In this document: piece after piece, positions 1-39,025 of the stretch
Layout of the letters: every line of letters starts with the position of its first letter
How positions within the stretch are numbered: the stretch's first letter is position 1
IMG/VR virus record: IMGVR_UViG_3300044823_000144
Coordinates: 1 to 45,722 of that record
Length of the DNA stretch: 45,722 nt
Direction: 5' to 3' (one strand)
Origin: a virus
Program-made: the position numbers and the translations under genes
The notes under the pieces: model-generated
Seen by the model: the letters and a program-made list of their open reading frames with translations, nothing else
The model's database searches: none
Told to the model about the DNA's origin: nothing

Positions 1-127
1 TCGCTCGGGTCGAGAGAACCTTGCAGATGCGCCTGCTTCATGCCCTCGGTGGCGGCATTAAGCTGCATGTGATGTTTTACGATCTGCTCTTTCAGTTTCA
101 CGATCTCAGGATTCGGAACCGGACCTG
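1..127. repeat. Terminal direct repeat (left copy), circular assembly overlap
   Basis: Bases 1-127 are identical to 45596-45722. The portal reading frame continues in phase across the join, so the window closes into a circle of 45,595 bp. The length of 127 matches a k-mer size commonly used by assemblers, which favours an assembly overlap over a packaged terminal repeat. Confidence 0.95.
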
Positions 128-3294: not shown

Positions 3295-4983
3295 TTATTT
3301 CTCCTTCATCCGATCCATCCACAGCGGTCGATGCCGGGGAGCTTCCTGCCGCTTCTGCTGCCGAATGGTGTTGCCCCACTTGGCGAAATGCCGGGTCACC
3401 GGGTCCATGCGATCCAGACGTTCCTGCTCCCGCATCTCTCCGGGCTTCTCGCTGGGATTGAAGTATCCGTACAGCCCCAAGCTGAAGGCGTCGTAGCAGT
3501 CGTCGTTCTTGCTCGGCCCATCGGGCTTGCTGACATCGAGCGGAGTAGCTTCGTCCGCCATAAGGTTCGGTATGGCGTCGATGATGGCGGGACATGTGCT
3601 GAGTACCACTAGTTCCTTGTGGGCAAGCTTCTGGTACATGAGCGTGGCACGACCGATCCTGTTGGTCGTTCCCCTGCTGACCGGGCACAAGCCCCTCCCG
3701 ACCATCTCCATGCTCACCACATCAGCGGGGGAATGCTCCTCCACCTGACGGCTGAACTTCTCATGCGAGAAGGCTATCATGTGGATTTTTTCCACCCGAG
3801 TCCCGTCGGGATATTTCAGGCTGTCCGCCACGATCTGGGCCATCTCGCGGGCCATCTTGTCCTTGACCACGTACTCCCTGAAGCACACGATCTTCCGGCG
3901 GTACTCGTAGCCGAACTCGCCATCCCGCCCGACGATCTTCGTCCTGACCTGCGCCAAAGTGAAAAAATACAATGCGTTCCAATGGCTGCCGATAGCCCAG
4001 TCCCATCCGCCGAACACGGGCTGCCACGGCTCCCAGATGATGGCGTCGGGATCGGACTTCAGGTCGATGACGTTGGCATCGCGGGAGAAAGCCCCGGAGA
4101 AATACTGCCCCGTGCCTCCCTCCATATATCCCAAGAGATACAAGTCCCGGAGATGAGGCGGCATCTTGTTCAAGCGGTCGATGATGCCGGGGTCGCGCTT
4201 CAGGGCGTGGGGGTTGTCAAGAACAGTGCTGTGGATCAATGCATAGTCATCGGGATTGTAGACGAGCCGGGGCTCCGCATAGTCGCTCAAGACCCAATAC
4301 CTTCCGTGCTTGTCCCGCTTCGCACCCTCGGGCTCTTCAAAGGGCTTCTTCTCACGGAACGTGGCACGGTACCACGGCCAATAGTCCCCGAAGGGGTTGG
4401 TGCATCCGGTGATGTGGGGAACGGGCATACACGGATAGCCGCACTTGGCGGGGTCTCCGCATCCGCCGCAAGGCTGGGTAACATCCGACATGCACTCGGG
4501 ATTCACGGTATTGCGGCTAACCAAGAGCATCCATGCCTCGGGGCTGAACTGGGCGCATTCGTCCGGCACGATGAAGGGGTAAGCCGTACCAAGATACTGC
4601 TGCACGTCCTCCTCCTTGCCATTTTTGCAGTGCCCGAAGACCAGCCTAGACCCGTTGATGAACGTGGCGACGTGGTTGGTCTCGTGATAGGAATACAGTT
4701 CGGGGGGACAGTGCTCGCGGAAATCCTCGATGGGTCCGGCTTTAAGCTCGGGAAACGTCTTCCTGAGACACAAGGCATTGGACTTCGGATAGCGGAGCAA
4801 GCCGTACTGGAGATCATTCATGATCGCCCCCGCAGTCTTGCCGCTGCGGATTCCACCGACCAAGAGGCGCTGCGTTGCTGTGAGCAAGGCGATCTGGGCT
4901 TGCTTCTCCGTGGGAATCCACTTCTTGCTGATGTCGAGCATGATTCCGTCTTCGGAAATATAATTTGGACGCTTCACGACCAT
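3295..4983 (-). CDS. terL: Terminase large subunit (562 aa)
   Basis: This is the ATP-driven motor and nuclease that packages DNA into the prohead. The Walker A motif is GGIRSGKT (residues 43-50) and the Walker B-like segment is FIVPDECAQFS. The C-terminal nuclease domain opens with GGWDWA and has a second acidic cluster at DDCYDAFS. A Cys-rich insert (CGGCGDPAKCGYPC) lies between the ATPase motifs and may bind zinc, which is unusual for TerL. The start at 4983 overlaps the end of the HNH gene by 10 bases; an internal Met at 4941 (MLDISKKW) is an alternative. The small-terminase-like gene lies upstream, separated by an HNH gene and a non-coding stretch. Confidence 0.93.
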   Translation of the reverse strand: MVVKRPNYISEDGIMLDISKKWIPTEKQAQIALLTATQRLLVGGIRSGKTAGAIMNDLQYGLLRYPKSNALCLRKTFPELKAGPIEDFREHCPPELYSYHETNHVATFINGSRLVFGHCKNGKEEDVQQYLGTAYPFIVPDECAQFSPEAWMLLVSRNTVNPECMSDVTQPCGGCGDPAKCGYPCMPVPHITGCTNPFGDYWPWYRATFREKKPFEEPEGAKRDKHGRYWVLSDYAEPRLVYNPDDYALIHSTVLDNPHALKRDPGIIDRLNKMPPHLRDLYLLGYMEGGTGQYFSGAFSRDANVIDLKSDPDAIIWEPWQPVFGGWDWAIGSHWNALYFFTLAQVRTKIVGRDGEFGYEYRRKIVCFREYVVKDKMAREMAQIVADSLKYPDGTRVEKIHMIAFSHEKFSRQVEEHSPADVVSMEMVGRGLCPVSRGTTNRIGRATLMYQKLAHKELVVLSTCPAIIDAIPNLMADEATPLDVSKPDGPSKNDDCYDAFSLGLYGYFNPSEKPGEMREQERLDRMDPVTRHFAKWGNTIRQQKRQEAPRHRPLWMDRMKEK

Positions 4984-5423
4984 ACCTCAAGGTAGATGAG
5001 CGCAAGGCGAACAAGTTTGGGATCATCCCCAAGTTGTCCTATCCCCGTATTGCAAGACCTGTGCAGGATTCCCCTCGGCTTATCCGTTTCATGATCGTGG
5101 TCGGCAACAGGGGGATTATCTTCAGTGAAGGGCCTTCCGCACAAGGCGCAAACACGATTCTGTTTCTCCATGGCGACTTCCCATGCCTTGGGTGTCCATC
5201 CAACACGAGCCAAAGCGTGTTTCCATTGAACGGCTTTCCCGGCAGGAGATTCCCTATATGCTTTGTTGTACTCTTTTCTGGTCATACCCCTCCATGACTT
5301 GATCTCTTTGCTTCTCTCAGAAGCGCATCGTTTGCAGCCATTATTCACAGTTCGAGAATCACGATTTGAGGTATCGTGCCCCCGCTTGCAAAATGATAAC
5401 CGTGGACGACCTGTTCTTGGCAT
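4974..5423 (-). CDS. HNH / endonuclease VII-type homing endonuclease (149 aa)
   Basis: An N-terminal basic region with CKRGH and CKRC motifs (about 12-35) is followed by the nuclease core CALCGRPF, then DHDHETDKPRGILHRSCN and a C-terminal LIYLEVW helix. That is the zinc-bound beta-beta-alpha-metal fold of recombination endonuclease VII. The start at 5423 (MPRTGRPRL) was chosen because the N-terminal zinc motif follows; the longer frame upstream looks non-coding. The ribosome site is weak. It sits between the small-terminase-like gene and terL, a place typical of free-standing homing genes. Confidence 0.85.
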   Translation of the reverse strand: MPRTGRPRLSFCKRGHDTSNRDSRTVNNGCKRCASERSKEIKSWRGMTRKEYNKAYRESPAGKAVQWKHALARVGWTPKAWEVAMEKQNRVCALCGRPFTEDNPPVADHDHETDKPRGILHRSCNTGIGQLGDDPKLVRLALIYLEVWS

Positions 5424-5744
5424 ATAACCAAGACATTGAAAGTTGATAAATTTTTGCGTAAAGGAAAGTGGAAAAACACGTTTGTGTGCGCCCCGCGACC
5501 CTACGCCGCCGCCGAATTTAGGGGTATGGGGGGTCAAACATAGCCGGAAAGAGACCCTAAGACGGTGTGCCATACTGCCGATGGATGAGAGCCGCTGGGT
5601 AGTCATACCCCTGACTAGCGGGCATGGAGGCGGGCCTGAGTCGGCGTGCATTGCTACGCAATGTCCTTGATCTTCGCCCCGTGTTCTCCGTACTGTGAGT
5701 TCTAGTCCGTTGACCAGTGTGCCAACACACAAGCTAATGCGCTC
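5424..5744. other. Non-coding, structured stretch between terminase genes
   Basis: No convincing gene lies here. It holds a 9-bp inverted repeat (5520-5528 with 5604-5612, AGGGGTATG/CATACCCCT) enclosing a GGGTC/GACCC pair (5531-5535, 5553-5557). A perfect small hairpin CATTGC-TAC-GCAATG lies near 5650-5664, and its right edge carries a plus-strand promoter-like sequence. Packaging sites (pac/cos) often lie beside or within terminase genes, so this is a candidate, but nothing in the sequence proves it. Confidence 0.5.
5710..5738 (+). promoter_or_regulatory. Plus-strand sigma70-like promoter with internal palindrome
   Basis: TTGACC (5710-5715), a 17-base spacer and GCTAAT (5733-5738). The spacer holds the perfect inverted repeat GTGTG-CCAA-CACAC (5717-5730), which could be an operator. 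The predicted transcription start falls on the ATG at 5745. Confidence 0.4.
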
Positions 5745-5912
5745 ATGATGCAGGACTTAAGCTTCAGCCTCGTGTCCTATAACGGCTATTATGTTAACCA
5801 GCACACGGCGCTGGCTGGGCATGGGTTCATTGTGATCGCCATGGGCGACTACAATGGCTCCCGGACGCACACAGGAGCCCACAGAACGAAGATAATGGTC
5901 TGGGAGTCCTAG
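5745..5912 (+). CDS. Possible small plus-strand protein (55 aa), antisense to the late arm
   Basis: The ORF begins MMQDLSFSLVSYNGYY and has a hydrophobic stretch ALAGHGFIVIAM around residues 22-33. There is no Shine-Dalgarno site, but a promoter-like sequence ends 7 bases before the first ATG, so a leaderless mRNA is possible. Its stop overlaps the stop of the convergent minus-strand gene at 5909. It belongs to a set of similarly placed plus-strand units (6455 and 22964). It may be spurious; it is listed because promoter, start and stop all fit the pattern. Confidence 0.3.
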   Translation: MMQDLSFSLVSYNGYYVNQHTALAGHGFIVIAMGDYNGSRTHTGAHRTKIMVWES

Positions 5913-6334
5913 TCGTCGAACTCGGGCTTCAGCAGGCGTGCATTGGCTGCGGGCGGTGGAGCCGGGAGCGCTGGTAGCTGCACGATCTGTATCTGGACGC
6001 CTTGCGCCCGCATGGCGTCGAGTTCTTCCTGATCCTTGAGCGGAACGCCGTAAGCTCGCTCTGCGAGCGCCCTGTACGCCCATATAGCTTCCTTGCGGGT
6101 CCGGGGATTATCGTCGATGGCGATGGCGATCATGTTGTCTACCATAGCTGCGTGCGCGGACTTGTCCTTGCCGGGTAGGATTTCGTCTAATTTCTTGGCT
6201 AAATAGGCTTGAGCCTTGCGACCGGGACTGGCGCTGCGGTTGGCGGGCAACCAGCGCCCGGTCACGGGGTCACGCCCAGTATCGGGCTGGGCCTCAGCTT
6301 CGATTATTCCATCTATAATGGGATTATCGCTCAT
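5909..6334 (-). CDS. Probable small terminase / packaging DNA-binding protein (141 aa)
   Basis: The N-terminal segment TGRWLPANRSASPGRK resembles the GRFxxGxSxNPxGRP opening of DUF5681/small-terminase-like phage proteins. A helical middle follows (AMVDNMIAIAIDDNPRTRKEAIWAYRALAERAYG, in parts), then a Pro/Ala-rich C-terminus. Length and position upstream of terL fit the DNA-recognition subunit that selects phage DNA for packaging. A GAGGAG site lies 10 bases before the ATG. No full HTH was recognised, so the assignment is by context plus weak motif similarity. Confidence 0.55.
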   Translation of the reverse strand: MSDNPIIDGIIEAEAQPDTGRDPVTGRWLPANRSASPGRKAQAYLAKKLDEILPGKDKSAHAAMVDNMIAIAIDDNPRTRKEAIWAYRALAERAYGVPLKDQEELDAMRAQGVQIQIVQLPALPAPPPAANARLLKPEFDD

Positions 6335-6362
6335 GCGTTAAATGCTCCTCAGTAAAGGAACT

Positions 6363-6400
6363 CCGTATACGGATATTTCTCGCGGGTAGCCATATACGGG
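6363..6400. promoter_or_regulatory. Palindrome CCGTATACGG and a nearby half-copy, possible operator
   Basis: A perfect 10-bp palindrome, CCGTATACGG (6363-6372), is followed by the related ATATACGG (6392-6399). It lies between the small-terminase-like gene start and the plus-strand promoter at 6420, so a regulator bound here could affect either strand. Binding is inference. Confidence 0.3.
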
Positions 6401-6419
6401 GGCCAATGCAAATTAGTTC

Positions 6420-6449
6420 TTGACAAACCCCCAACGTTGATACCACAAT
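6420..6449 (+). promoter_or_regulatory. Plus-strand sigma70-like promoter with perfect -35
   Basis: TTGACA (6420-6425) matches the -35 consensus exactly; CACAAT (6444-6449) is a 4/6 -10 at an 18-base spacing. The predicted start is at or next to the ATG at 6455. TAGGGTA follows the -10, as it does after the promoter at 22921. Confidence 0.45.
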
Positions 6450-6454
6450 AGGGT

Positions 6455-6592
6455 ATGACCAACCTTCTTATGTTGATTCACCAAATCGCCTGCTGGTCTA
6501 CCGAGCGGCTGTGGCATATGTCGCTCATGTTGTTCATCGCACTCATTGTGATCGACTGCGTTATGCTTTTAAGTAAGAAGGCCCAACCATGA
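6455..6592 (+). CDS. Small membrane peptide (45 aa), first of an antisense pair
   Basis: The ORF begins MTNLLMLIHQIACW, has a predicted transmembrane helix about residues 21-40 (HMSLMLFIALIVIDCVMLL) and a KK cytoplasmic end. A promoter with perfect TTGACA stands directly before it, so the message would be leaderless or nearly so. Its stop overlaps the next start as ATGA, a sign of translational coupling. It runs opposite to all neighbouring late genes. Function unknown; a lysis, superinfection-exclusion or membrane-toxin role is only a guess. Confidence 0.5.
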   Translation: MTNLLMLIHQIACWSTERLWHMSLMLFIALIVIDCVMLLSKKAQP

Positions 6593-6720
6593 ATTTCCTC
6601 TTGGGTTGGATGTATTTCTGGTTCTTCCTTTGGGGCTGGATCAGGGTGTGCCGGGGCACTACAACTCATCAAGCTCTTCGTCAGCACGCGCCGGGTGATC
6701 ATCAAAATCCAAATCCATAA
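6589..6720 (+). CDS. Small Trp-rich membrane peptide (43 aa), second of an antisense pair
   Basis: The N-terminal 20 residues (MNFLLGWMYFWFFLWGWIRV) are extremely hydrophobic and aromatic, giving one membrane helix followed by a hydrophilic His/Pro-rich tail. It is coupled to the preceding ORF through ATGA, with AAGG 7 bases before the start. Its 3' end overlaps the 3' end of the minus-strand coding segment at 6659-6823, so the two transcripts would be antisense there. Function unknown. Confidence 0.45.
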   Translation: MNFLLGWMYFWFFLWGWIRVCRGTTTHQALRQHAPGDHQNPNP

Positions 6721-6900
6721 CGGGTTCGCCAAGCTCACGGGCCTTATGCACAGCCCAACGCAACGGTCGGCGTTGGTCCTCAGTCAAATCCGCTGCTTCG
6801 ATCAAATTCTCGATTTCATCCAAATCATCTATTATATCTCCTCAAGGATATCAATCTCGCATACCCCCGTATCTTCAATTTTAGACTCTTCCTCGACCAT
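6659..6900 (-). pseudogene. Acidic small gene, apparently frameshifted or with an unusual start
   Basis: From the ATG at 6900 a short acidic peptide (MVEEESKIEDTGVCEIDIL...) stops at 6832-6834. In the -1 frame, coding-like sequence continues at once as DDLDEIENLIEAADLTEDQ and ends DEELDEL at the TAG 6659-6661. No ATG opens the second part. A strong GAGGAG (6838-6843) precedes it, with only ATA or a distant TTG (6823) as possible starts. The two parts read as one acidic protein of about 80 residues if the frame slips near 6833. Sequencing indel, decay, recoding or a non-AUG start are all possible. Confidence 0.5.
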
Positions 6901-6931
6901 TAAAATAATTATCTAAGGGTGTGTGTGCATC

Positions 6932-7092
6932 TTGCACGGCACTCTTGCACGGCACTCTGCGTAGCACTCTGCACGGCACTCTATGTGATAGATAGATATT
7001 AAAAAATACACTTAGACAGGCATTACTTAGAGTCCCGTGCAGAGTGCCGTGCAAACTCTCACTACACACTCACATATTCTTGCACGGCACTC
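6932..7092. repeat. Iteron array, candidate replication origin
   Basis: The 13-mer TTGCACGGCACTC occurs exactly at 6932-6944, 6945-6957 and 7080-7092, and exactly inverted at 7042-7054. Close 12-base copies are at 6958-6969 (TGCGTAGCACTC), 6970-6981 and, inverted, 7030-7041. The first four are head-to-tail with no spacing. An AT-rich stretch (6982-7029) lies between the direct and inverted copies. The array abuts the stop of the primase-helicase gene. Iterons beside an AT-rich element and a plasmid-type replication gene are typical of an origin bound by an initiator; operator function is the main alternative. Confidence 0.75.
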
Positions 7093-9258
7093 CTATATTG
7101 CCTCGATCAATTTGCAGGCTTCCTCACCCGCCAACCGTGCTTTCGTATCTCGGCATACCCACCACCATCCCCCCATTTCCCAACCACCATCCGCCATCCG
7201 GCGACGGTCATCAAACTCTATGTCCATTTCCTTGTCCGTGATGAGCTTCTTCCGGGCCCGCTTCAAGGTATCGACACTTATGCTCCCATTAGCCGGGGAC
7301 TCGGCTTCGGCATAAAGCTTGTCGCACTTGTACTCCCAATTCTGGCTGAACCTGATCCGCAGGAACGCTTTTGCCGCTTCAAGCTTCGAGTCGAATCCGC
7401 CTTCTTTCTTGGCAGCCCGTTCCTCATCCATAACATCATCCGCACTGAGATCGTGTTTCTCACCCCACTCAATATAGCCGATCTCTTCCAACATCCTTCC
7501 GTCGTATGCTTCGACATCCTTGCTCCCGATGCTGAATCTCATGCCTCCGGGCTCACGGCTCAAACTGCTCTTGATGTTCGCCATGATACGGCCATCCGGC
7601 TTTGCCTTGGGGTCCTTGCTGATCCTAATTCCAGCCCTCACCACTTGGCTAACCGAGCCAGCCCCGAGAATCTTATCCACGGCATTGGCGTCTCCCCGCT
7701 TGTTCTCATGGATGAGAAGGATGAATGCCACCCCTGTCATGCGGCAAACCTTGGCGATTGCCTGCATCATCGGGCGTATTCTCTTGTTGTCGTTCCCGTC
7801 GATGCCCCCGAAAAATCCAGTCAATGGATCAAGGATGACGAGCAAAATTTGTGGGTTAGCCTGTAGGTACTCCCTCAGTCTATAGATGTCCTCGGTTATG
7901 TTCAGTTCCCGGCTACGGTAGTTGCCGCTATCGTCTTTGTCGAAAGCATTTTTCAGGAAGTGGATTTTAGAGCAATCCGCGTCCGCAGCCATAAGGCGGG
8001 GCTTGATCGTAGTTTCAAGGTCGTCTTCCGTTGCGGCGATCAATGTCTCCCTCATCCCCATTGTATTCTTCTGTCCATCCGGCCAATCCCTGCCCCGGCT
8101 CATGCGGGCGGCGATATCGGTGCCGAACATGCTTTTGTTGGTGCCGACCGCGCCACTGACCACGAGTCCGCATCCACGGGGTAGACGGCCTTTCCACAAC
8201 CAATCCACCGGGCGTTCTTTCACCTCATCCAGCCGTATGGTGGTGAATCCTCCGGTATCCGCTTGATTCCTCCAATGCTTGCCCCCCGGTTCGATGGGCT
8301 GCTCTGGAACCGCTTCCGTTTCGAGCGACTCGGCGGGCATTACATCGAAAGCTTCAAGTATTTTATCGATGGACTCTTCGACCCAAATCTTGCCGGGATA
8401 TGGCTCATGATACTGGTTAAGATGTTTGACCAGTTGCCCGAAGGTCATCATCGAGCCGATGCAGCCGCCTGCGAAACAGTGGAACTCCGGCGTCCGGCCA
8501 TCAAACCTGAATCCCGTCTTCTGGCTGTGCTCGTGTTTCCGCCCCGTACCCGGACCTTCATAAGTCGCGGGGCAAATGCTGCTGACCCACCAATCGCCGT
8601 CTTGCTGGCAAGTAAAGATATCCTCGTAAAATGTCAGCCATTCGCCGGGCTTCCAATTTTCATGCGCCGTTGGGCCCAGTCCTTTCGACCTGATGGCTTT
8701 AGGCCCGCTGGAGTTCTTTTCCAACCACAGGGCGAACTCCTTGTCCATTTTCCCAAATGGCGCTTTCATATCTTCGGCGGCGTACACCGTGCCTGTCCAA
8801 TGCACGGAGCCCGGCCCCACGACATAATACCCATGTTCGCGGAACGAGAATCGCTCCTCATCACCAATGGCGGCCTTGCGGTTGCCCAGCAGTATGGTTG
8901 TCTCGTCGGAGCCATAATAGTAGTGTTTCTTCTGAAGCCCGGTCGCTTCGCAAATGCTCGTCCGCACTGTGAACGCAGGGGGGAAGAGTTTCCCCGTTTC
9001 GGATTCGTAACATTCTTTTAGATCGCCGCGATCGTCGTCCAGAAACCCCACGCCATTCGCCGCGCATCCCACATTCGCCGTAGGCCACTGCCGGTTCCAC
9101 TCGATGAGGATCAGGCGGTTGGTGGTGGCGTCGTCCACGCCGTTTTCGGTGAGCGGATTCTTGCCGCTTGTGCCGTCGCCTTTCACTGCGGAGGCGATGG
9201 GAAATACGCTTAAGCCCCGCTTGACCAGCGGGAGCGCCCGTTCGAGGAAGCTGTCCAT
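7093..9258 (-). CDS. Primase-polymerase / RepA-type helicase replication protein (721 aa)
   Basis: The N-terminal domain (about 1-200) resembles bifunctional primase/polymerases of plasmids and phages: KNPLTENGVDDATTN, IEWNRQWPTANVG and the acidic FLDDDRGD (72-79). A CHC2-like zinc segment follows (C229, C261-C266). The C-terminal part is a RecA-like RepA/AAA_25 helicase with Walker A GAVGTNKS (369-376) and Walker B LLVILDP (about 472-478). It would prime and unwind phage DNA. The start at 9258 overlaps the upstream stop (TAATG) with AAGG 7 bases before; the open frame upstream to 9303 is less likely. No other replication enzyme is present, so host polymerase is probably used. The gene ends exactly at the last iteron. 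Confidence 0.85.
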   Translation of the reverse strand: MDSFLERALPLVKRGLSVFPIASAVKGDGTSGKNPLTENGVDDATTNRLILIEWNRQWPTANVGCAANGVGFLDDDRGDLKECYESETGKLFPPAFTVRTSICEATGLQKKHYYYGSDETTILLGNRKAAIGDEERFSFREHGYYVVGPGSVHWTGTVYAAEDMKAPFGKMDKEFALWLEKNSSGPKAIRSKGLGPTAHENWKPGEWLTFYEDIFTCQQDGDWWVSSICPATYEGPGTGRKHEHSQKTGFRFDGRTPEFHCFAGGCIGSMMTFGQLVKHLNQYHEPYPGKIWVEESIDKILEAFDVMPAESLETEAVPEQPIEPGGKHWRNQADTGGFTTIRLDEVKERPVDWLWKGRLPRGCGLVVSGAVGTNKSMFGTDIAARMSRGRDWPDGQKNTMGMRETLIAATEDDLETTIKPRLMAADADCSKIHFLKNAFDKDDSGNYRSRELNITEDIYRLREYLQANPQILLVILDPLTGFFGGIDGNDNKRIRPMMQAIAKVCRMTGVAFILLIHENKRGDANAVDKILGAGSVSQVVRAGIRISKDPKAKPDGRIMANIKSSLSREPGGMRFSIGSKDVEAYDGRMLEEIGYIEWGEKHDLSADDVMDEERAAKKEGGFDSKLEAAKAFLRIRFSQNWEYKCDKLYAEAESPANGSISVDTLKRARKKLITDKEMDIEFDDRRRMADGGWEMGGWWWVCRDTKARLAGEEACKLIEAI

Positions 9259-9434
9259 TATTCGGCCTTCTTCGGTCGGCCCATCTTCATCGGTATTTTC
9301 CATGCCTTCGCAAAAAAGCTGATGGTGGGAACGGGATACCCGCTGAGTTTGCTCACTTCCGTTAGCCTCAGTCCATCCCGTAAAAGCTTTTCGATGCGAT
9401 CAAGGCCCATCCTTGGGGTTTTAATTACTGGCAT
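9258..9434 (-). CDS. Small helix-turn-helix DNA-binding protein (58 aa)
   Basis: Residues about 9-42 (LDRIEKLLRDGLRLTEVSKL followed by SGYPVPTISFFAKAW) read as a helix-turn-helix like those of Cro/resolvase-type proteins, with a basic C-terminal tail. The ATG at 9434 (MPVIKTPRM) has AAGGAG 6 bases upstream, so it is preferred over the longer frame from 9485, which would run through the palindrome. As the first gene of the minus-strand arm next to the divergent operator-like region, it is a good candidate for the regulator of both arms. Confidence 0.7.
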   Translation of the reverse strand: MPVIKTPRMGLDRIEKLLRDGLRLTEVSKLSGYPVPTISFFAKAWKIPMKMGRPKKAE

Positions 9435-11447: not shown

Positions 11448-13307
11448 ATGAAGATAGCCATTGTCAGCAACATTGATAATGGTGTGGGGCTCCAGAAGGA
11501 TTACGAGCTTCTGAAGGCGTTCCTTGAACGCCGCGGGCATGATGTTACGGGCGTGCATTGGCTATCCGACCACAAGGGCGAGTATGACCTCTGCATCTTC
11601 CTTGAGACAATGGTGGAAGGTTTGCTGGGCCTGAGCAAAAGGCTGTGGTATTTTCCCAATCCCGAGTGGTTGAGGCCTCAAGACGAGCGCATCATGCGCA
11701 AGCACATCGAGAAGGTCTTCGCCAAGACACACGCAGCATACGATTCCCTGTCCAAGAAATTCACGAATGTGCATTACGTGGGCTTCATGGCCGAAGACCG
11801 CATGGACTGCTTGGTGCCCCGCAAGCGGCAGTTCCTCCACATCGGAGGCAATGGCGCATGCCGCAACACCAGCCAAGTGCTGGAGGCGTGGCGCTCCTGC
11901 CGTTATTGGGAAGGCGTTCCCGAAGACCTGCCGCTGATTATTGTGAGTCGCAATGCCGACTACAAGCACGAGGACACGCCCGGCGTCACGCGCAACAAGC
12001 GGCTGGATGATACCGAGATCAAGCGGCTCCAGAACGAGTCCATGTTCCACTTGATGCCCAGCGCCACGGAAGGCTATGGGCATGCGATTCACGAGGCGTT
12101 GAGCGTTGGCGCTTTGCTCATCACCACGGATGCCCCGCCGATGAATGAAATCAAGACGGCGTTCTTTGTTCCAAGCTGCGGCTCGGCTCCCTGCAACAAT
12201 GCGACGCTGTATGAAGTCAACCCGGCGGACATCAGGGAAGCCTGTAATGCAGCAGCGGAAGTGGAAGTTGACGACATACTCGGCTTTTCCAAATTGGCTT
12301 GCGAGGAGTTCGAGCGGGGCAACGAGGAATTTGGGCGGCTGTTCCTGCCGCACCTGACCCGCATGCGCCATGCCGTGGAGAAGCCCGTCATCGCCATACT
12401 GGGAAACTTTGTAGTGCCGTGGTGTACGGAGCAAGATTGGGCATGGTCGTTTGAATCACTCGGCCATAGGGTATTGAAGTTTCAAGAGAATACAGAAAGA
12501 GCCGAAGATGTGTTGGACGCCTGCAAAAACGCCAAAGTTGATCTTTTTTGCTATGTGCACTCCCATGGATTCGTTTCTCCCGGAGAAATGTCTCCCGAAG
12601 ACCTGATAACTGGATTGCGTGCCGCTGGCATTGTCACCGTCTCCCCCCATTTGGATTTGTATTTTGGGCTAAACATAAGCGATGGTCGGGACGCATCGGT
12701 GGGGAAAAGCGCATACTGGAAGACGGATTATGTGATAACCGCCGATGGGTCTTCTCAGGAAAAGTTCCGAGATCGCGGCGTGAACCACGTTCCAATGATG
12801 CCCGGAGTCGTGGCTCGGGACTGCTACGAAGGCAAATCAAGAGAGGATTTCAAAGTCGATGTGGGATTTTGCGGGGCCGGGCCGGGCTATCATGCGGAAT
12901 GGCCGTGGCGGGGAGAAATGATCCGCGCTCTTCAGGATGCCTATGGAAACAGGTTCCGCCAGTTCAATGGAATCAGGGGGCGGGATTTGAATGATCTGTA
13001 TGCATCCGTAAAGGTGCTGGTCGCAGATTGTTGCTTCGCCGGTAAGCCGTATTATATATCAGACCGTTGGCCGGAAACTTGTGGCCGTGGGGGATTCTTG
13101 CTGGCCCCGCAGGTTGAAGGCGTGTGCATTCCGCTGGCTACATTCAAGCCCTGCGATGCCGGGGACATGATCGAGAAAATAGACTACTACTTGGAGCATG
13201 AACAGGAACGGGAACTGATTCGCAGAGCATGCCACGAGCATGTCAAGAACCACGATACCTATACCCACCGTGCCCGGCAAATTTTGAAAATCGCGGGGTT
13301 AAGCTGA
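11448..13307 (+). CDS. Two-domain glycosyltransferase fusion (619 aa)
   Basis: The N-terminal half (1 to about 310) is a GT-B enzyme: MKIAIVSNIDNGVG start, HIGGNG (131-136) and the retaining GT4 signature MPSATEGYGHAIHEAL with the EX7E pair E208/E216. The C-terminal half (about 313-619) begins again with VIAILGNFVVPW and resembles CgeB/glycosyl-transferase group 1 C-terminal domains (VGFCGAGP, GRGGFLLAP, and a YTHRAR helix near the end). Two transferases in one chain could add two sugars in sequence. It opens the glycosylation cassette; the next HNH gene overlaps its stop (TGATG). Acceptor and sugar donors cannot be read from sequence. Confidence 0.8.
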   Translation: MKIAIVSNIDNGVGLQKDYELLKAFLERRGHDVTGVHWLSDHKGEYDLCIFLETMVEGLLGLSKRLWYFPNPEWLRPQDERIMRKHIEKVFAKTHAAYDSLSKKFTNVHYVGFMAEDRMDCLVPRKRQFLHIGGNGACRNTSQVLEAWRSCRYWEGVPEDLPLIIVSRNADYKHEDTPGVTRNKRLDDTEIKRLQNESMFHLMPSATEGYGHAIHEALSVGALLITTDAPPMNEIKTAFFVPSCGSAPCNNATLYEVNPADIREACNAAAEVEVDDILGFSKLACEEFERGNEEFGRLFLPHLTRMRHAVEKPVIAILGNFVVPWCTEQDWAWSFESLGHRVLKFQENTERAEDVLDACKNAKVDLFCYVHSHGFVSPGEMSPEDLITGLRAAGIVTVSPHLDLYFGLNISDGRDASVGKSAYWKTDYVITADGSSQEKFRDRGVNHVPMMPGVVARDCYEGKSREDFKVDVGFCGAGPGYHAEWPWRGEMIRALQDAYGNRFRQFNGIRGRDLNDLYASVKVLVADCCFAGKPYYISDRWPETCGRGGFLLAPQVEGVCIPLATFKPCDAGDMIEKIDYYLEHEQERELIRRACHEHVKNHDTYTHRARQILKIAGLS

Positions 13308-13690
13308 TGCCGTATAAAGACAAAGAAAAACGAAGAATTTCCAACAGAAAAAGTTACCTAGCAAACAGAGAAAAAAATAGAAAAAAAGACAACGAGCGAG
13401 CAAAAGAGTGGCATGACGCCCATCCAGAATTTTACATAGCTTACCGCTACAAGTACACACAAGGAGAGCCCATAGAAAATAAGATCGCCAGACTTGAGGC
13501 GCAGGACTATAAGTGCGCCAACCAAGCTTGTTTGAAACCCATTGATATTACTTCTGGGCATCAAGATCACAACCATGAGACGGGACAAAAACGTGGTGTT
13601 TTATGCGGTCCCTGCAATCACGCACTTGGATTACTAAAAGACAATGTTGGACTTGTTATGGGTTTAGCGGCTTACAGGAGTCTGTCATGA
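13307..13690 (+). CDS. HNH / endonuclease VII-type homing endonuclease (127 aa)
   Basis: A Lys/Arg-rich N-terminus (MPYKDKEKRRISNRK) leads to the nuclease core: CANQAC, then QDHNHETGQKRGVLCGPCNH and LGLLKDN. The DHNHETG...RG.LC..CN pattern is the endonuclease VII fold. The coding sequence is clearly more AT-rich than the glycosyltransferases on both sides, a sign of independent arrival. It overlaps its neighbours by TGATG and ATGA, so it was inserted without breaking either gene. Confidence 0.85.
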   Translation: MPYKDKEKRRISNRKSYLANREKNRKKDNERAKEWHDAHPEFYIAYRYKYTQGEPIENKIARLEAQDYKCANQACLKPIDITSGHQDHNHETGQKRGVLCGPCNHALGLLKDNVGLVMGLAAYRSLS

Positions 13691-14523
13691 CAGTCATCTG
13701 GTACAACGCTCGGGGCTACTGGGATCACACGATCCTGAACCTGTTTTTCGATGCGGACACGAAGTATGTGGATTCGTTTGACAAGCTTGAAGACGATGGC
13801 GCTGTCGTGGTGCTGTGCGCCCGCTGGGCCAAGGACGAGATCGACGAGATCAACCGCCGCCTGAGCCGCCTGAAGTGGGCGGTTGTGTTCTGGACGGGGA
13901 ACGAGGATATGCTGTTCGTGCCCGGTGCCCTCAAGCATCCGAACATGCGGATATGGGTGCAAATGCCCGTGCCGGGGCTCGACCCCGAGTACCGCCGCCT
14001 CCCTAACGGGCCTACGCCGGGCCTCCCCATCGGTATTCCCCCCAAGACGCTCGACTGGGCGTTCTTGGGACAGGTCACGCACCAGAGGCGCAGGGATTGT
14101 CATGATGCCCTCAGCGGGCTTCCCAATGGCTTCCTGTATGGTTCTAACGGCTTCACGCAGGGGTTGCCGCACGCCGAATACCTCCAAAAGCTCGCCGAGG
14201 CTAAAATAGCCCCCTGTCCCAGCGGACCCATGAACCCGGACAGCTTCCGGGTCTACGAGGCGCTGGAGCTTGGCTGCGTGCCCATCGTTGACAGCCGCAC
14301 CGTGAGCGATAGGTTCCCCATGGGTTACTGGGAGACTTTGTTCGGGAACGATTTCCCCCTGCCGCAGATCACGGACTGGAGCACAATCGGCGATGTAATC
14401 GCCCAGCAGCTTGCGTTGTGGCCCGAGAATCAGATCAAATGCTTCGGTTGGTGGGTAGGAGCTAAAGCAAAAATGCAAAAAATTTTCCGGGCGGATTTGG
14501 AGGAGCTTAAACTTGGGGCATAG
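13687..14523 (+). CDS. Exostosin-like glycosyltransferase (278 aa)
   Basis: The C-terminal motif MNPDSFRVYEALELGCVPIV is the typical nucleotide-sugar-binding segment of exostosin-like (GT47) and related GT-B enzymes. DWAFLGQVTHQRRRD at about 124 and FLYGSNGFTQGL are also consistent. The start at 13687 (MTVIWYNARGYW) overlaps the HNH stop as ATGA. It probably transfers a sugar to a glycan acceptor together with the surrounding enzymes. The 3' end overlaps the next HNH-like gene by 11 bases. Confidence 0.75.
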   Translation: MTVIWYNARGYWDHTILNLFFDADTKYVDSFDKLEDDGAVVVLCARWAKDEIDEINRRLSRLKWAVVFWTGNEDMLFVPGALKHPNMRIWVQMPVPGLDPEYRRLPNGPTPGLPIGIPPKTLDWAFLGQVTHQRRRDCHDALSGLPNGFLYGSNGFTQGLPHAEYLQKLAEAKIAPCPSGPMNPDSFRVYEALELGCVPIVDSRTVSDRFPMGYWETLFGNDFPLPQITDWSTIGDVIAQQLALWPENQIKCFGWWVGAKAKMQKIFRADLEELKLGA

Positions 14524-14902
14524 GGAAAGCAACGCAAAATGGTATACCAAAAATAGGGGATATTCACTATCCAAAAGCAGGACGTGGAGAAAAGACCGCC
14601 CCAAAGAGAATGCAGAAACACAACGACTGTGGGCATTGGGGATTAAGGTAAAAGTGTTCACTCACTATGGCCCCAACAAAGAAGTTCGATGTTCTTGGGA
14701 AGGCTGTATGGTCACTGATTTAGACATGCTTTCTTTAGACCACATTAACAACGATGGTGCGCAGCAACGCAAGTCGGGATTTCCAAGTGGTAAGAATCTC
14801 TATAGGAAACTTATGAACGATGGTTACCCGGCGGGTTTCCAAACCATGTGCATGAATCATCAGCATAAAAAGCTACAACTCAAGCACAGAGGGGAAATCT
14901 AA
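14513..14902 (+). CDS. HNH-like homing endonuclease (129 aa), TTG start
   Basis: The core reads CSWEGC, then LSLDHINNDGAQQRK and YRKLMNDGYPAGFQTMCMNHQHKK, which fits an HNH nuclease with DH and CxNH motifs. The start is TTG at 14513 with an excellent GGAGGAG 7 bases upstream. It is AT-richer than its neighbours. The stop overlaps the next ATG (TAATG). It is the second endonuclease inside the glycosylation cassette and of a different HNH subtype from the one at 13307. Confidence 0.75.
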   Translation: MGHRESNAKWYTKNRGYSLSKSRTWRKDRPKENAETQRLWALGIKVKVFTHYGPNKEVRCSWEGCMVTDLDMLSLDHINNDGAQQRKSGFPSGKNLYRKLMNDGYPAGFQTMCMNHQHKKLQLKHRGEI

Positions 14903-15648
14903 TGAGCTACCGTGACGACATCTCCATCATGATTCCAGTATCAGTTATACCATCTCACCCGCTGACTCATGTGTTGGATTGGACAATAGCTTCGGCACGG
15001 AGCCATCTTTTTAGCGCACCGATCTATTTAATGTTCGACGGTGTGAGAGTGGAGCAGGCTGACCGCAAAGAAGCTTACGAGGAGTTCAAGCGGCGTCTTG
15101 TGTTCCCGCCATGGGCTGGACCAGTACATAGGGTTGAGTTCGCCACGTTCAATCACCAAGCATCAATGCTTCGAGAGGCACTCAAACAAGTGACAACGCC
15201 TTTGGTGTTGTTTTTGGAGAGCGACTGGCTGCTGCTTGAGCCCATACCTTGGGACGCCATGGCGCAGACCATACTGGAGCGGCAGGCGGATGTGATCAGG
15301 CTGCACCAAGACGCCGCCATCCACCCGGAGCACGCCCATTTGTTCCTTGAGCACACGGAGATCAATGGCATTCCGTTGCGCAAGATGAAAGTCTTCTGGG
15401 CTCAGCCACACCTTGCCTATACGGATTGGTACAGAAAGCAACTGGCGGAGAAGTTCACCTCCTATTGCAGGTGCTTCATCGAGGACAGGCTGTATGGGAT
15501 CAACCTCGACACGCCTTGGGAGGACAACAAGGTTTTCATGTACGATCCTCCGGGCACGCTGAAGAGAGTAAGCCATACGGACGGCAGGGGCAAGGACGAG
15601 ACCGGGGCTCCGTTGGTTACCAAGTGGGAAGAGAAGCAGGTGTTCTGA
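14902..15648 (+). CDS. Glycosyltransferase-like protein, GT-A/family 2 type (248 aa)
   Basis: The N-terminus ISIMIPVSVIPSHP and the segment TTPLVLFLESDWLL (about 97-110) resemble the nucleotide-binding core and acidic metal-binding motif of GT-A transferases. Mid-region residues (IRLHQDAAIHPEH, FWAQPHLAYTDW) are compatible with an acceptor-binding half. The start overlaps the HNH stop; its stop overlaps the FkbM gene start (TGATG). The exact family is less certain than for its neighbours. Confidence 0.65.
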   Translation: MSYRDDISIMIPVSVIPSHPLTHVLDWTIASARSHLFSAPIYLMFDGVRVEQADRKEAYEEFKRRLVFPPWAGPVHRVEFATFNHQASMLREALKQVTTPLVLFLESDWLLLEPIPWDAMAQTILERQADVIRLHQDAAIHPEHAHLFLEHTEINGIPLRKMKVFWAQPHLAYTDWYRKQLAEKFTSYCRCFIEDRLYGINLDTPWEDNKVFMYDPPGTLKRVSHTDGRGKDETGAPLVTKWEEKQVF

Positions 15649-16382
15649 TGGATACGTTCACGAAACTGGATGAAGCAAAGTGGTCGCGGCGCATGATTGG
15701 CGGGCAATGGGTTTTTGTCCCGTCGTTTGAAGACCCGAACGATCTTGAGCATTGGGAGATATCCACCTATCTCTCCATGCAATCGCTGCTCAAGCCCGGC
15801 ATGCTGTTCTACGAGATCGGTGCGTACACGGGCTGGTGCGATGTTCCCATCACCCGCTTTGTGGGCGGAGCGGAAAACATGGTGCTCGTGGAGCCCAATC
15901 CGATTAACTGGCCGAACATTAAAGCAACTCTGGAAAAGAACTCTTGCGGAATCCCGCGAGCGACATTCATGGGATTTGCGGGAACCGACGAGAAGTTTTT
16001 ATCCCCGGTGGTTCATAATGGATACCCCACCGAGCCTGACTATGGTAAGCTGATGGAGGTGTGCTCCTTCAGGTTGCTGGACGAGCAGGGGAATAAAGAC
16101 AACACCGCTTGCATCACGCTGGATAATCTTGTTGCGCTTTGCGGAGCGCCGGACGCAATCAACGTGGATGTCGAGGGAGCGGCCCTCATCGTGCTCCAGT
16201 CGGCCACACAGACTTTGCGCAGGTATCGTCCCATGATCTGGGTCAGCATCCACCCAATCACCTTGCGGGAGACTACCAAACTCCTTCCTCCGGAAGAGGG
16301 CGTGCACAACTACCTGAAGCAATATGGCTACCGGGGAACGTTCCTCGGGAAAGACCACGAGGAGCACTGGGTTTATGTCTGA
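15648..16382 (+). CDS. FkbM-family SAM-dependent methyltransferase (244 aa)
   Basis: SAM-binding motif I is LFYEIGAYTGWCDVPITRFV (about 52-71), followed by acidic VLVEPNP (motif II). Later INVDVEGAALIVLQSA and WVSIHPI match the C-terminal motifs of FkbM O-methyltransferases, which usually methylate sugars. The start at 15648 overlaps the previous stop (TGATG); a longer frame upstream lies inside the previous gene. It overlaps the next start by 8 bases. Likely role: methyl-capping of the glycan made by this cassette. Confidence 0.8.
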   Translation: MDTFTKLDEAKWSRRMIGGQWVFVPSFEDPNDLEHWEISTYLSMQSLLKPGMLFYEIGAYTGWCDVPITRFVGGAENMVLVEPNPINWPNIKATLEKNSCGIPRATFMGFAGTDEKFLSPVVHNGYPTEPDYGKLMEVCSFRLLDEQGNKDNTACITLDNLVALCGAPDAINVDVEGAALIVLQSATQTLRRYRPMIWVSIHPITLRETTKLLPPEEGVHNYLKQYGYRGTFLGKDHEEHWVYV

Positions 16383-17484
16383 TGCCACCATCATTCTATG
16401 CTGCTACAACCGGGCGAGGCAGCTTGACCGGACGCTGGAAAGCATAGCGGCGCAGGACTACACCGACGTGGATACCATTGTTGTTGAAGACGGCAACGAT
16501 GGTCGGACGGAAGAGATTGCCCGCAAATGGGGAGCCATCTACATCCACCATGAACGAGCCGACGAGTGGCCTACGTTCCAAAGCATTTCGTTGATCCGCA
16601 ACATCGGCATCAGGGCGGCGCAAACGCCTGTCATTATACTGCAAGATGCGGAGATGATGTATGAGAACAAAGATGCTGTGAGCAACTTGATCGGTTCTTT
16701 ATGGGTTCAGCGGCTAGGAAATTCTCCCGATAAAATGGTTGCAGCGGGCATGGTAAAATCGCTGGATAGGTGGGGCGCATTTGAGCGGTGGTTCACGCAT
16801 CCCACATATTGCCCCAACTCGGCGGGCGGAAGCCCTCGCGCCATGATGCGGCAGACAGTGCTGGAGATGGGTGGATTCGAGGAGCGGTTCTTTGGGTACG
16901 GATTCGAGGACAACTACTTCACTTGGCTCATGCTGAAGAAAACATCCCTCGTCTATATCCCGAGCGTCGTGGCCGCCCACCAGTGGCACGAGCCCACGGG
17001 CGGAGCCTACGAGCCGATCACAGGCTCATCCAACGAAGCGTTGGTTCACCGATTGACTTCGGAAATATCATGGCACGCCATGCCGCCTGTTGCCAATCTT
17101 CCTATACCCACGTATGAATCAGTAAGCTACGATGAGGTAAGGAAGCTCGTCCAAGCCGCCGTGCCTTTGTTTGCAAACGGCGATTGGCAAAGCTGGGCAC
17201 AAGCCTACTTGCAAGATGACCATGGCGACATCAACGCTTCCAGCGTGGCGCGGTACAAAGCAGCATCCGCAGCGCCGCATGACAGGGAAGAGCATGTCGC
17301 CATGCGTGCTGCGCAAGCGGCATGGGCATTGGAATGGATTGACCGCTGCGATGCGGAGTGTGCGTTGCATCCCGAACGCGCAGCACGCATCCGATTGTGC
17401 GGGGAAAATTTCACAGCCGACGCCTACCTGTCTGTGGAGATCGGCAACCGGGTTCTGAATGGCGAAGAAGTACGCCTCTGGTAA
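16375..17484 (+). CDS. Family 2 glycosyltransferase with galactosyltransferase-like C-terminal motif (369 aa)
   Basis: MSDATIILCCYNRARQLDRT is the standard GT2 opening. VDTIVVEDGNDG and IILQDAEMM (DXE-type metal site, about 90-98) form the GT-A core. MGGFEERFFGYGFEDNYF (about 168-185) matches the catalytic segment of polypeptide-GalNAc/chondroitin-type transferases. A helical C-terminal third (about 260-369) is unrecognised. The start overlaps the FkbM stop. This is one of the clearest sugar transferases here. Confidence 0.82.
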   Translation: MSDATIILCCYNRARQLDRTLESIAAQDYTDVDTIVVEDGNDGRTEEIARKWGAIYIHHERADEWPTFQSISLIRNIGIRAAQTPVIILQDAEMMYENKDAVSNLIGSLWVQRLGNSPDKMVAAGMVKSLDRWGAFERWFTHPTYCPNSAGGSPRAMMRQTVLEMGGFEERFFGYGFEDNYFTWLMLKKTSLVYIPSVVAAHQWHEPTGGAYEPITGSSNEALVHRLTSEISWHAMPPVANLPIPTYESVSYDEVRKLVQAAVPLFANGDWQSWAQAYLQDDHGDINASSVARYKAASAAPHDREEHVAMRAAQAAWALEWIDRCDAECALHPERAARIRLCGENFTADAYLSVEIGNRVLNGEEVRLW

Positions 17485-17492
17485 GGAGAACT

Positions 17493-18263
17493 ATGTCAAA
17501 CAATAAGTTGCATCACGATTACGTTTGGTCTCGCATGAGGAGGGAACATCCTGAGTTCACTCACGACCATGACGTTTTTGACGACGACTATGCGGTTGAG
17601 ACTTTGCTGCTCGGAGAATACATAGGCTTCAAGCCGTTCGCCGGGGCCAAAGTAATGGACATCGGCGCGAACGTCGGCATCCTCACGGCTTTCTGGGCGC
17701 TGAATGGGTGCGATGTGACTTCCTACGAAGCCGATCCCGTCACCTACGGCATCCTCGTGGGCATGTTGGAGAAGACTCGGCTCCGATGGTTTCACCACGA
17801 CGGGGGGAATGAGCATTACGATGGTGTTCAAGCCATCAACGCCGCGGTCTACAAATACGACGGCACCATACCTTTCCTCGGAGCTACGGGCGGCATAGGA
17901 AATCCGCTGCGGAACGGAGCCATACAGGTTGCGGACATGGGCGACAAGCGATTGGACGCTCCGTCCACTCCCTGTGTCACATTGGCTACGGCGCTCGGAA
18001 CCACGGTCTGGAACTGCGTTAAGTTCGACATTGAAGGAGCGGAGTTCGAGACGCTGCTGGCGGTTCCGATTGAAACCCTGCGGAATCAAGTAAAGTATAT
18101 GCAGGTGGAACTCCACAACGGCTGGGCCGATGGCGTGCTGTACAAGAAGCTTATCGACAAGCTGGAATCGGTGTACGATGTCAGCGGACCTGTCAACGGC
18201 AATGACGCCGAATCCGCGGAATGGATCGGGAGGTACCATTGGGTGCAATGCAAAGGGAAGTAG
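17493..18263 (+). CDS. FkbM-like methyltransferase (256 aa)
   Basis: Motif I is AKVMDIGANVGILTAFWALN (about 51-70), then VTSYEADPVTYGIL (motif II). CVKFDIEGAEFETLLAVP and YMQVELHN are the characteristic FkbM C-terminal motifs. AAGGAG is 4 bases before the ATG at 17493, and the gene is separated from the previous stop by 8 bases. It is only distantly similar to the FkbM gene at 15648, so the two probably modify different positions. Confidence 0.8.
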   Translation: MSNNKLHHDYVWSRMRREHPEFTHDHDVFDDDYAVETLLLGEYIGFKPFAGAKVMDIGANVGILTAFWALNGCDVTSYEADPVTYGILVGMLEKTRLRWFHHDGGNEHYDGVQAINAAVYKYDGTIPFLGATGGIGNPLRNGAIQVADMGDKRLDAPSTPCVTLATALGTTVWNCVKFDIEGAEFETLLAVPIETLRNQVKYMQVELHNGWADGVLYKKLIDKLESVYDVSGPVNGNDAESAEWIGRYHWVQCKGK

Positions 18264-19180
18264 TTTTCGTCCCAACCTATCATCGGAGCGCATTCCTGTG
18301 GTGCTGCCTTGAGGCTATCCGCAAGGCGGAGCCCGATATCCAGATCATCGTGCAGCCCGACAGGGGCACCGAGGAACTGGAAGTTTGCAACAGGTTCAGG
18401 GCGGAGCAACGATTCGTGACGAAGCACACTTACCACGGAAATAGCTTCAACATGATGGAAGGACTGCGCTATTGCTGCGAAGCGGGATACGACCGGGTGT
18501 TCGTGGTTGAGGACGATTGTATTGTTGATCCCACGTTCTTCGGATGGGCTAGGAATGCACTGGACAATCCCAAACCGTGGATGGGTGCGCCGTTCGCAGC
18601 GAGCGGCTGGATGTATAGTCCGGATATGCCGGACGAGGAAGGGCCGGATGTGCTGCTTAACTGGTATTTGTCCGTATGCTCGGCTATTCCCCGCCGCAGC
18701 TTAGAGCGGATCACAGTGCACGCACAGCACAACTACTACGTCAATATGAAAAAGTATGTGGACGAGACTTTTCCCCGAGACCCGCAAGTCGGAACCATGC
18801 ATTACGAGCAGGACGGGCTGATACTGAGAATAGCGAACTCGGCTGGGGAGAGGTTCGCATGGCCACGCAAGCCAAGGGCTCTTCATCTGGGCTGGACTGG
18901 GTACCACATGCCTCATGGCAAGATGCCGCAAGCGGAATTAAGGAAACAAGTGCTGGTTGTGAAGATGGCTATAGAGAACCCGGAAATCCTGAGGCAGTTG
19001 ATGGCCGGAAGCGAGCCGCCCGCTGTAGGGGAATGCCGTTCCTGCGGCAGGGCATTGGTAAGCACGAACAAAAAAGCAGCGATGGTGTGCGTCGGCTGCT
19101 TTCACAAGCAGAATCCAAACGCTCCTATCGCTGCCAAATCCCACTATTACATTAAACGTTCAGAGGAAGCACAGCCGTGA
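18239..19180 (+). CDS. Glycosyltransferase (GT-A) with C-terminal zinc ribbon (about 313 aa)
   Basis: The core reads VVFVPTYHRSAFLWCCLEAI, then YDRVFVVEDDCIVDPTFFGW, with VEDDC as the DXD metal site. Residues near the C-terminus (CRSCGRAL and CVGCF) form a four-cysteine ribbon, an unusual appendage on a glycosyltransferase. Start choice is uncertain: TTG at 18239 has GGGAGG at ideal spacing; ATG at 18248 (MQREVVF) and 18221 are alternatives. Its 3' end overlaps the convergent minus-strand gene by 29 bases. It is the last gene of the plus-strand arm. Confidence 0.75.
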   Translation: MGAMQREVVFVPTYHRSAFLWCCLEAIRKAEPDIQIIVQPDRGTEELEVCNRFRAEQRFVTKHTYHGNSFNMMEGLRYCCEAGYDRVFVVEDDCIVDPTFFGWARNALDNPKPWMGAPFAASGWMYSPDMPDEEGPDVLLNWYLSVCSAIPRRSLERITVHAQHNYYVNMKKYVDETFPRDPQVGTMHYEQDGLILRIANSAGERFAWPRKPRALHLGWTGYHMPHGKMPQAELRKQVLVVKMAIENPEILRQLMAGSEPPAVGECRSCGRALVSTNKKAAMVCVGCFHKQNPNAPIAAKSHYYIKRSEEAQP

Positions 19181-35900: not shown

Positions 35901-36185
35901 TCAAAATCGTTTTTCTAAGTATTCCGCAGCTAAGCGAAGAAGGAGGGGGTTATCTTCAAGAAGCCCCATGGCCCTGTTACATTTACCATGAATAATTCCT
36001 CTAATTTCACCTGTGGTATGGTTGTGGTCTACTGGGGGCTGTCTCTGCTCACCACCTAAGGGTCTTTTACAGGCTAAGCACAAACCAGCCTGCAACCTCC
36101 ACATCTCATTATACCGATCTAAGGAAATGCCGAAACGATATTTAAGGCGAGCGGATCGCCTATGCTCTTTATTCTTTGACGACAT
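35901..36185 (-). CDS. HNH / endonuclease VII-type homing endonuclease (94 aa)
   Basis: MSSKNKEHRRSARLKYRFGI leads to CLACKRPL, then VDHNHTTGEIRGIIHGKCNRAMGLLEDNP, and ends AAEYLEKRF: the compact endonuclease VII core. The start at 36185 has GGGGAGGGGAA upstream; an open frame to 36206 would run into the structured RNA. Closely similar in motif order to the HNH at 40555. It is flanked by a terminator-like hairpin and a structured RNA. Confidence 0.85.
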   Translation of the reverse strand: MSSKNKEHRRSARLKYRFGISLDRYNEMWRLQAGLCLACKRPLGGEQRQPPVDHNHTTGEIRGIIHGKCNRAMGLLEDNPLLLRLAAEYLEKRF

Positions 36186-36205
36186 TTCCCCTCCCCAATA
36201 AGGCA

Positions 36206-36278
36206 TCGGTAGCTATGAAGTCCACGCTTGCGCGGGGGCTCAGAAACCCGCCCGAAGGCGAGACCCCTTCGCTACCGA
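36206..36278 (-). ncRNA. Compact structured RNA candidate with UUCG- and GNRA-type loops
   Basis: An 8-bp outer stem (36206-36213 TCGGTAGC with 36271-36278 GCTACCGA) encloses two hairpins. One is CGCC-UUCG-GGCG (minus strand, 36249-36260) extended by a GGGG/CCCC helix. The other is CGC-GCAA-GCG (36225-36234) with CC/GG below. The loops are the stable UUCG and GNRA types on the minus strand, so that strand is probably the RNA. It lies 21 bases before the HNH start, downstream of the 299-aa gene. Known class not recognised. Confidence 0.55.
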
Positions 36279-38953: not shown

Positions 38954-38964
38954 ATCCGGTAGTC

Positions 38965-38999: not shown

Positions 39000-39025
39000 C
39001 CTAGCTAAGTTGATCGATTGGCCTA

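What the first reader, a model, noticed from the sequence alone, without database searches (positions are those of the whole stretch)
6932..7092. Iteron array with inverted copies around an AT-rich core next to the replication gene
Seven copies of a 12-13-mer (four exact) form a head-to-tail block, an inverted pair and a final direct copy, separated by AT-rich DNA. Iterons with an AT-rich element beside a primase-helicase are a plasmid-type origin pattern, uncommon in tailed phages and a possible sign of plasmid-like maintenance. No integrase or partition gene was recognised.
Basis: partly seen in the sequence, partly recalled or inferred. Interest (0 to 1): 0.7.

Follow-up and report, generated by a model that had tools for sequence, protein, structure and literature searches.

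The report
Phage origin beside its initiator gene
A tailed phage carries seven copies of a short DNA word arranged around its most easily opened stretch of DNA, right behind the gene for its combined DNA-priming and DNA-unwinding protein; this is very probably where the phage starts copying its genome, and it looks like the starting points so far described for small phage-parasite islands.

Summary
The array is real. Window 6932-7092 holds seven 12/13-bp sites (four exact TTGCACGGCACTC): four head-to-tail, an AT-rich core, an inverted pair and one lone copy that abuts the stop codon of the only recognised replication gene (7093-9303, minus strand). No 300-bp stretch elsewhere in the genome has more than 3 copies of any 11-mer. 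The core is the least stable 30- and 50-bp duplex in the 45.6-kb genome. The gene encodes a Prim-Pol primase, an RSF1010-RepA-like helicase and a predicted C-terminal winged helix. Similar arrays follow the initiator gene in NrS-1, phi105 and relatives, a Staphylococcus phage and plasmid pCG2, but not in most comparators. The layout matches the published PICI origin: immediately 3' of pri/rep, two iteron sets around an AT-rich region. Best reading: the phage replication origin, bound and opened by its own initiator. Plasmid-like maintenance is unsupported: Pfam integrase, resolvase, ParA and ParB models give no match. GC skew does not decide, and binding and replication are untested.

The parts
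6932..6981 (+). Iteron block A: four head-to-tail sites (6932, 6945, 6958 degenerate, 6970)
6982..7029 (.). AT-rich core between the iteron blocks, candidate DNA unwinding element; least stable 30- and 50-bp windows of the genome start at 6978 and 6981-6982
7030..7054 (-). Iteron block B: two tandem sites in inverted orientation (7030-7041, 7042-7054)
7055..7079 (.). 25-bp spacer, 60% AT
7080..7092 (+). Iteron C: lone exact site that abuts the stop codon of the initiator gene
7093..9303 (-). Initiator gene: 736-aa Prim-Pol (PF09250, residues 24-177), RecA-like helicase (AAA_25, PF13481, residues 356-538), predicted C-terminal winged helix (about residues 639-717)
9258..9434 (-). Small ORF that overlaps the initiator start and looks like a helix-turn-helix protein by eye (no significant family match); same position as the annotated HTH genes next to Prim-Pol in phages Kakheti25 and KL1
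5909..6334 (-). 141-aa ORF in the place of a terminase small subunit (inferred from position; no significant family match)
3295..4983 (-). Terminase large subunit, marks the record as a tailed phage

Best explanation
The array is the phage's replication origin. Shown: seven sites in two opposed blocks (plus one lone site) around the least stable DNA of the genome, directly 3' of the only recognised replication gene. Inferred: the 736-aa protein binds the sites through its C-terminal winged helix, two opposed groups of subunits assemble on either side, the AT-rich core melts, the RepA-like hexamers load on the opened strands and travel apart, and the Prim-Pol domain of the same protein makes the first primers. 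It works like the origins of phage-inducible chromosomal islands (PICIs), with a RecA-type helicase in place of their initiator helicase.
For: Array far above chance and unique in the genome; core is rank 1 for instability at 30 and 50 bp; the protein has primase and helicase domains and a C-terminal helix-helix-helix-strand-strand unit modelled at block pLDDT 74-91; its helicase matches RSF1010 RepA best (Z 21.4, 3.0 A, 217 residues; DnaB and T7 gp4 nearly tied). Position recurs in other Prim-Pol replicons: score >=4 in 8 of 14 distinct 3' flanks of the NrS-1 and phi105 families against 0 of 61 3' flanks of other ORFs in the same loci; pCG2, phi105 and DSP2 also have the least stable 50 bp of the fetched locus inside the array. 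In NrS-1 the 8-nt initiation site of its polymerase, TTTGGTTA (PMC8718748), lies in the array. PICI origin layout and function: PMC6092414 passages; SaPI Rep C-terminal domain recognises iterons directly downstream of its gene: PMC7581432 passages.
Against: No close relative with this array was found, so conservation of this very array is untested. The nearest viral homologue, L006 (28% identity), has no array at that place, and only 4 of 20 comparators reach score 4 in the 3' flank (other windows of the same loci: 15 of 324, my sum of that output). GC-skew minimum is 2.7-2.9 kb away. The winged helix is a prediction from an 18-sequence alignment, and neither Pfam nor the structure searches named that domain. 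Binding, melting and replication were not tested.
Confidence: 0.8

Rival explanations
1. Operator array: the sites bind a transcription regulator (for example the small HTH-like product next to the initiator gene) that switches between the replication genes and the packaging genes downstream.
For: The array lies between the replication gene and the packaging genes; a small HTH-like ORF overlaps the initiator start; four tandem sites could bind a regulator cooperatively.
Against: No sigma-70-like promoter was found on the minus strand in 6300-7200 (other promoter types are not covered); the least stable DNA of the genome lies between the blocks, which an operator does not need; Prim-Pol phages with an HTH gene in the same place (Kakheti25, KL1) lack a 3' array, so HTH gene and array do not go together.
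Confidence: 0.1
2. Packaging site (cos or pac): the terminase small subunit binds the repeats, which sit about 600 bp before its presumed gene.
For: Gene order is initiator, array, small ORFs, presumed small terminase, large terminase; NrS-1 has a similar order.
Against: Plasmid pCG2 has a comparable array after its Prim-Pol/AAA_25 gene with no terminase annotated; in phi105 the array is followed by nuclease and small genes, not terminase, in the fetched stretch. The record closes with a 127-bp overlap inside a coding frame, so the assembly gives no sign of an end at the array.
Confidence: 0.05
3. RNA element or transcription terminator: the inverted sites act as a hairpin at the end of the initiator transcript.
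For: Strong predicted fold (z -5.0); it lies directly after a stop codon.
Against: No terminator-like site was found at the array; the extra direct copies and the lone seventh copy are not needed for a hairpin; the loop would be about 48 nt.
Confidence: 0.04

Closest known systems
PICI/SaPI replication origin (pri-rep-ori), PMC6092414 and PMC7581432
   Same: Directly 3' of the initiator gene; primase and helicase fused or adjacent; two sets of short iterons around an AT-rich region; C-terminal part of the initiator is the binder (reported for SaPI Rep, predicted here).
   Different: Here in a record with terminase and tail-fibre genes and no integrase match, not a satellite; helicase is RecA/RepA-like (AAA_25), whereas SaPI-related helicases are MCM-like (recalled); iterons are 12-13 bp; one lone extra copy.
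Phage NrS-1 Prim-Pol locus and its relative L029
   Same: Mixed-orientation array (10 and 9 sites at 11 bp) starts 10 and 23 bp after the Prim-Pol stop codon, ahead of the terminase genes in NrS-1; NrS-1 polymerase initiates at TTTGGTTA, one copy of which lies in the array.
   Different: Different unit sequence; NrS-1 polymerase carries another helicase domain (recalled).
Bacillus phage phi105 and relatives; Staphylococcus phage vB_SpsX-DSP2
   Same: Array right after the Prim-Pol gene with sites in both orientations around AT-rich DNA.
   Different: Units of other sequence, fewer sites in most (score 2 to 7 in the family); their helicase type was not tested here.
Corynebacterium glutamicum plasmid pCG2
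   Same: Prim-Pol plus AAA_25 initiator as here, direct and inverted repeats in the 465-bp gap after the gene.
   Different: Plasmid; repeats longer and less regular.
RSF1010 replicon (RepA helicase, RepB' primase, RepC iteron binder; roles recalled)
   Same: Best structural match of the helicase domain is RSF1010 RepA; iterons plus AT-rich DNA (recalled).
   Different: Here primase, helicase and presumed DNA-binding domain are one protein; in RSF1010 they are separate (recalled).

Membership tests
PICI-type replication origin | Lies immediately 3' of the initiator gene | tested here: met
   Array 6932-7092, stop codon of the minus-strand gene at 7093-7095
PICI-type replication origin | Two sets of iterons flank an AT-rich region | tested here: met
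   Four sites, 48-bp core of 75% AT, two inverted sites; core least stable in the genome
PICI-type replication origin | Initiator helicase of the SaPI Rep kind | tested here: not met
   Helicase domain is AAA_25, RecA/RepA-like; the kind of the SaPI helicase is taken from recall and from PMC7581432 passages
PICI-type replication origin | Iterons are bound by the C-terminal domain of the initiator | not testable with these tools
   Winged-helix-like C-terminus predicted only
PICI-type replication origin | Supports autonomous replication of a plasmid with the initiator | not testable with these tools
   Bench test needed
PICI element itself | Integrase gene; satellite without its own full virion genes | tested here: not met
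   No PF00589 or PF00239 match; terminase large subunit and tail fibre present
Iteron plasmid with DnaA-assisted origin | DnaA boxes beside the iterons | tested here: not met
   No TTWTNCACA at <=1 mismatch inside 6932-7092; one exact match at 6744, and the genome count (52) equals chance (49.9)
Iteron plasmid with partition system | ParA/ParB genes | tested here: not met
   PF13614 and PF02195 no match, controls ring in 14 and 10 of 14
Lambda-type phage origin | Iterons inside the initiator gene (recalled) | tested here: not met
   Array lies wholly outside the gene

The most novel reading that the evidence does not exclude
A one-protein replicon: the same polypeptide binds the iterons with its C-terminal winged helix, opens the core with its RepA-like ring, and primes on the iterons themselves. 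Each full site carries two 5'-GTG-3' on one strand (GAGTGCCGTGCAA), the motif at which NrS-1 polymerase and ORF904 start primers (PMC8718748 passages); the array has 13 GTG on the minus strand where about 2 are expected from the genome average. The PICI-type origin would then not be a PICI hallmark but a general origin of fused primase-helicase initiators in phages, plasmids and satellites.
Probability: 0.25. Interest if true: 0.65.

Novelty: new variant of a known kind. Interest (0 to 1): 0.45.

Why it matters
[quoted passage not shown] This phage, together with NrS-1, phi105 relatives, DSP2 and plasmid pCG2, shows a like layout outside PICIs, tied to Prim-Pol initiators. That gives a simple rule for finding origins in uncultured phages (look just behind the fused primase-helicase gene) and a test of whether satellites and phages share or exchange replication modules.

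Tried and rejected
Close relatives by initiator, by large terminase, by a 450-aa late gene and by the doubled 12-mer in viral contigs, by DNA in phages and by initiator in genome contigs: none close; two distant loci (L006, L007). Large terminase in the whole record of L006: no match.

GC skew as origin evidence: rejected as confounded by the coding-strand switch near 9.5 kb; third-position skews per gene showed no clean switch.

Structure of the whole initiator from one sequence: useless, pLDDT 32. Pfam on the C-terminal 100 residues: only an EF-hand-like hit at E 0.075, taken as chance. Structure searches list only the helicase core; nothing is named for the C-terminal part, which they barely test.

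A shared core motif: I first thought that the GGCA core of the window's site was a conserved recognition word of AAA_25 initiators. Convergent YGGCA was found in 7 of 31 distinct 3' flanks and in 1 of 122 control stretches, but I chose that motif after reading the same flanks, and several flanks among the 31 are probably not true gene ends (for example L144, L157, L160); I kept them in as misses. On a motif-free 8-mer score 5 of 33 distinct flanks, the window included, had p<=0.05 against 1 of 63 controls. I treat this as a lead only. An inverted repeat behind a stop codon may also be a terminator, which is why the main test counts four or more copies.

Low-scoring comparators: arrays were absent (score 2 or 3) behind the genes of L006, L008-L014, L016 and L020-L026. 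Fifteen of 324 other windows reached 4 (my sum of that output); several of these are same-strand repeats, as one search shows for L006, L013 and L020, and I did not classify them all.

Literature: searches listed no paper whose title or abstract describes iteron arrays behind Prim-Pol genes of tailed phages; the library holds only open-licence papers and the NrS-1 PNAS paper is not held, so this is no proof of absence.

Full report
What is there. The window is a virus record of 45,722 bases whose first and last 127 bases are identical, so the circular unit is 45,595 bp; 127 bp looks like an assembly overlap (inference). Genes of a tailed phage are present: terminase large subunit, tail fibre; also GroES and GroEL homologues. 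I scanned 49 distinct ORFs against PHROGs; most had no match.

The array. Seven 12/13-bp sites lie at 6932-7092: four head-to-tail on +, a 48-bp core of 75% AT, two tandem sites on -, a 25-bp spacer, and a lone + site that abuts the stop codon of the initiator gene. Eight of 13 columns are invariant across the seven sites. In a whole-genome scan the array scores 6; no other of the 455 sliding windows exceeds 3, and 300 shuffles of the region reach at most 2. The core holds the least stable 30-bp and 50-bp windows of the whole genome; at 100 bp it ranks fifth among separated minima, behind 6817, 9418, 13296 and 40974.

The initiator. The 736-aa product of 7093-9303 (-) has a Prim-Pol domain (PF09250, 2e-14) and an AAA_25 domain (PF13481, 2.8e-25). 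An 18-sequence alignment of residues 330-736 gave a model with mean pLDDT 81.8; behind the RecA-like core comes helix, short strand, helix, helix, strand, strand (model 310-388, protein about 639-717), the order of a winged helix (the reading of the topology is mine). The helicase core matches RSF1010 RepA best (Z 21.4, rmsd 3.0, 217 aligned; DnaB 20.4 and T7 gp4 20.1 are nearly tied).

Comparison. In 20 fetched Prim-Pol or AAA_25 loci, a score of 4 or more in the 450 bp after the stop codon was found in 4 (NrS-1 10, pCG2 5, phi105 4, DSP2 4), against 15 of 324 other windows of these loci (the sums are mine). Widening two of these families: 8 of 14 distinct 3' flanks score 4 or more against 0 of 61 3' flanks of other ORFs in the same loci; counted against all other windows, without NrS-1 itself, 7 of 13 against 1 of 127. 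Near-duplicate flanks and flanks shorter than 450 bp were dropped before these counts. The L029 array keeps its place but not its unit (68% protein identity to NrS-1). The nearest viral homologue of the window's protein, L006 at 28%, has none. So the place is a recurrent but not universal site of iterons.

Literature seen. PMC6092414, passages: PICIs have pri and rep, sometimes fused, followed by the origin; the region immediately 3' of the initiator gene is the origin; always two iteron sets flank an AT-rich region; rep-ori supports plasmid replication in E. coli; [quoted passage not shown] PMC7581432, passages: SaPI Rep recognises iterons directly downstream of its gene by its C-terminal domain; CCPol-MP primes on the iteron region of a putative SCCmec origin. 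PMC8718748, passages: NrS-1 polymerase starts at TTTGGTTA and at GTG motifs, and the former may fix the start of genome replication. PMC7102993, passages: two such sites in the NrS-1 genome, possible origin. I find one of them in the 10.8-kb stretch fetched, inside the array. PMC5862659, PMC7145576 and PMC5135824, passages, for background only.

Mechanism. Shown: layout, instability, domain content. Inferred: binding by the winged helix, opening of the core, loading of two rings, priming by the Prim-Pol domain. There is no DnaA box in the array, so DnaA may not be needed there (inference). Against: no conservation test for this very array, skew minimum elsewhere, and no experiment.

What it is not. 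Not evidence of plasmid-like life: no integrase, resolvase, ParA or ParB match. A packaging site or operator array is less likely for the reasons given under the rivals, but neither is excluded by experiment.

Novel reading. Thirteen GTG on the minus strand of the 161-bp array against 12.9 per kb in the genome follow from two GTG per site; with the priming motif of related enzymes this allows the sites to be both landing and priming sites. Untested.

Noticed in passing
window 1-127 and 45596-45722: Exact 127-bp direct terminal repeat: the record closes to a 45,595-bp circle, probably an assembler overlap.
   Followed up: partly
window 41045-42685 and 38424-39083 (-): GroEL homologue (4.5e-134) and a GroES-like protein in a 46-kb phage.
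   Followed up: no
window 4974-5732, 13229-13690, 35901-36206, 40555-41010: Four genes with endonuclease VII matches, plus a homing-endonuclease-like ORF at 44041-44643.
   Followed up: no
window 11448-19180 (+): Glycosyltransferase and methyltransferase genes cluster on the opposite strand from most of the genome.
   Followed up: no
L020 6529-6551 and L022 6512-6549: Short repeats ACGAAGGTTTG / CGAAGGTTTGC inside the Prim-Pol genes of phages Kakheti25 and RcSpartan at like positions: possible intragenic origin or a protein repeat.
   Followed up: no
L127, L133, L146, L153, L158, L168 just behind the AAA_25 gene: AAA_25 genes of gut Firmicutes elements and a virus contig are followed by opposed (C/T)GGCA words around an AT-rich centre; motif found post hoc.
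   Followed up: partly
L006 2557-3156: 27 copies in register of a 15-bp repeat, probably coding, in the virus contig with the nearest initiator homologue.
   Followed up: no
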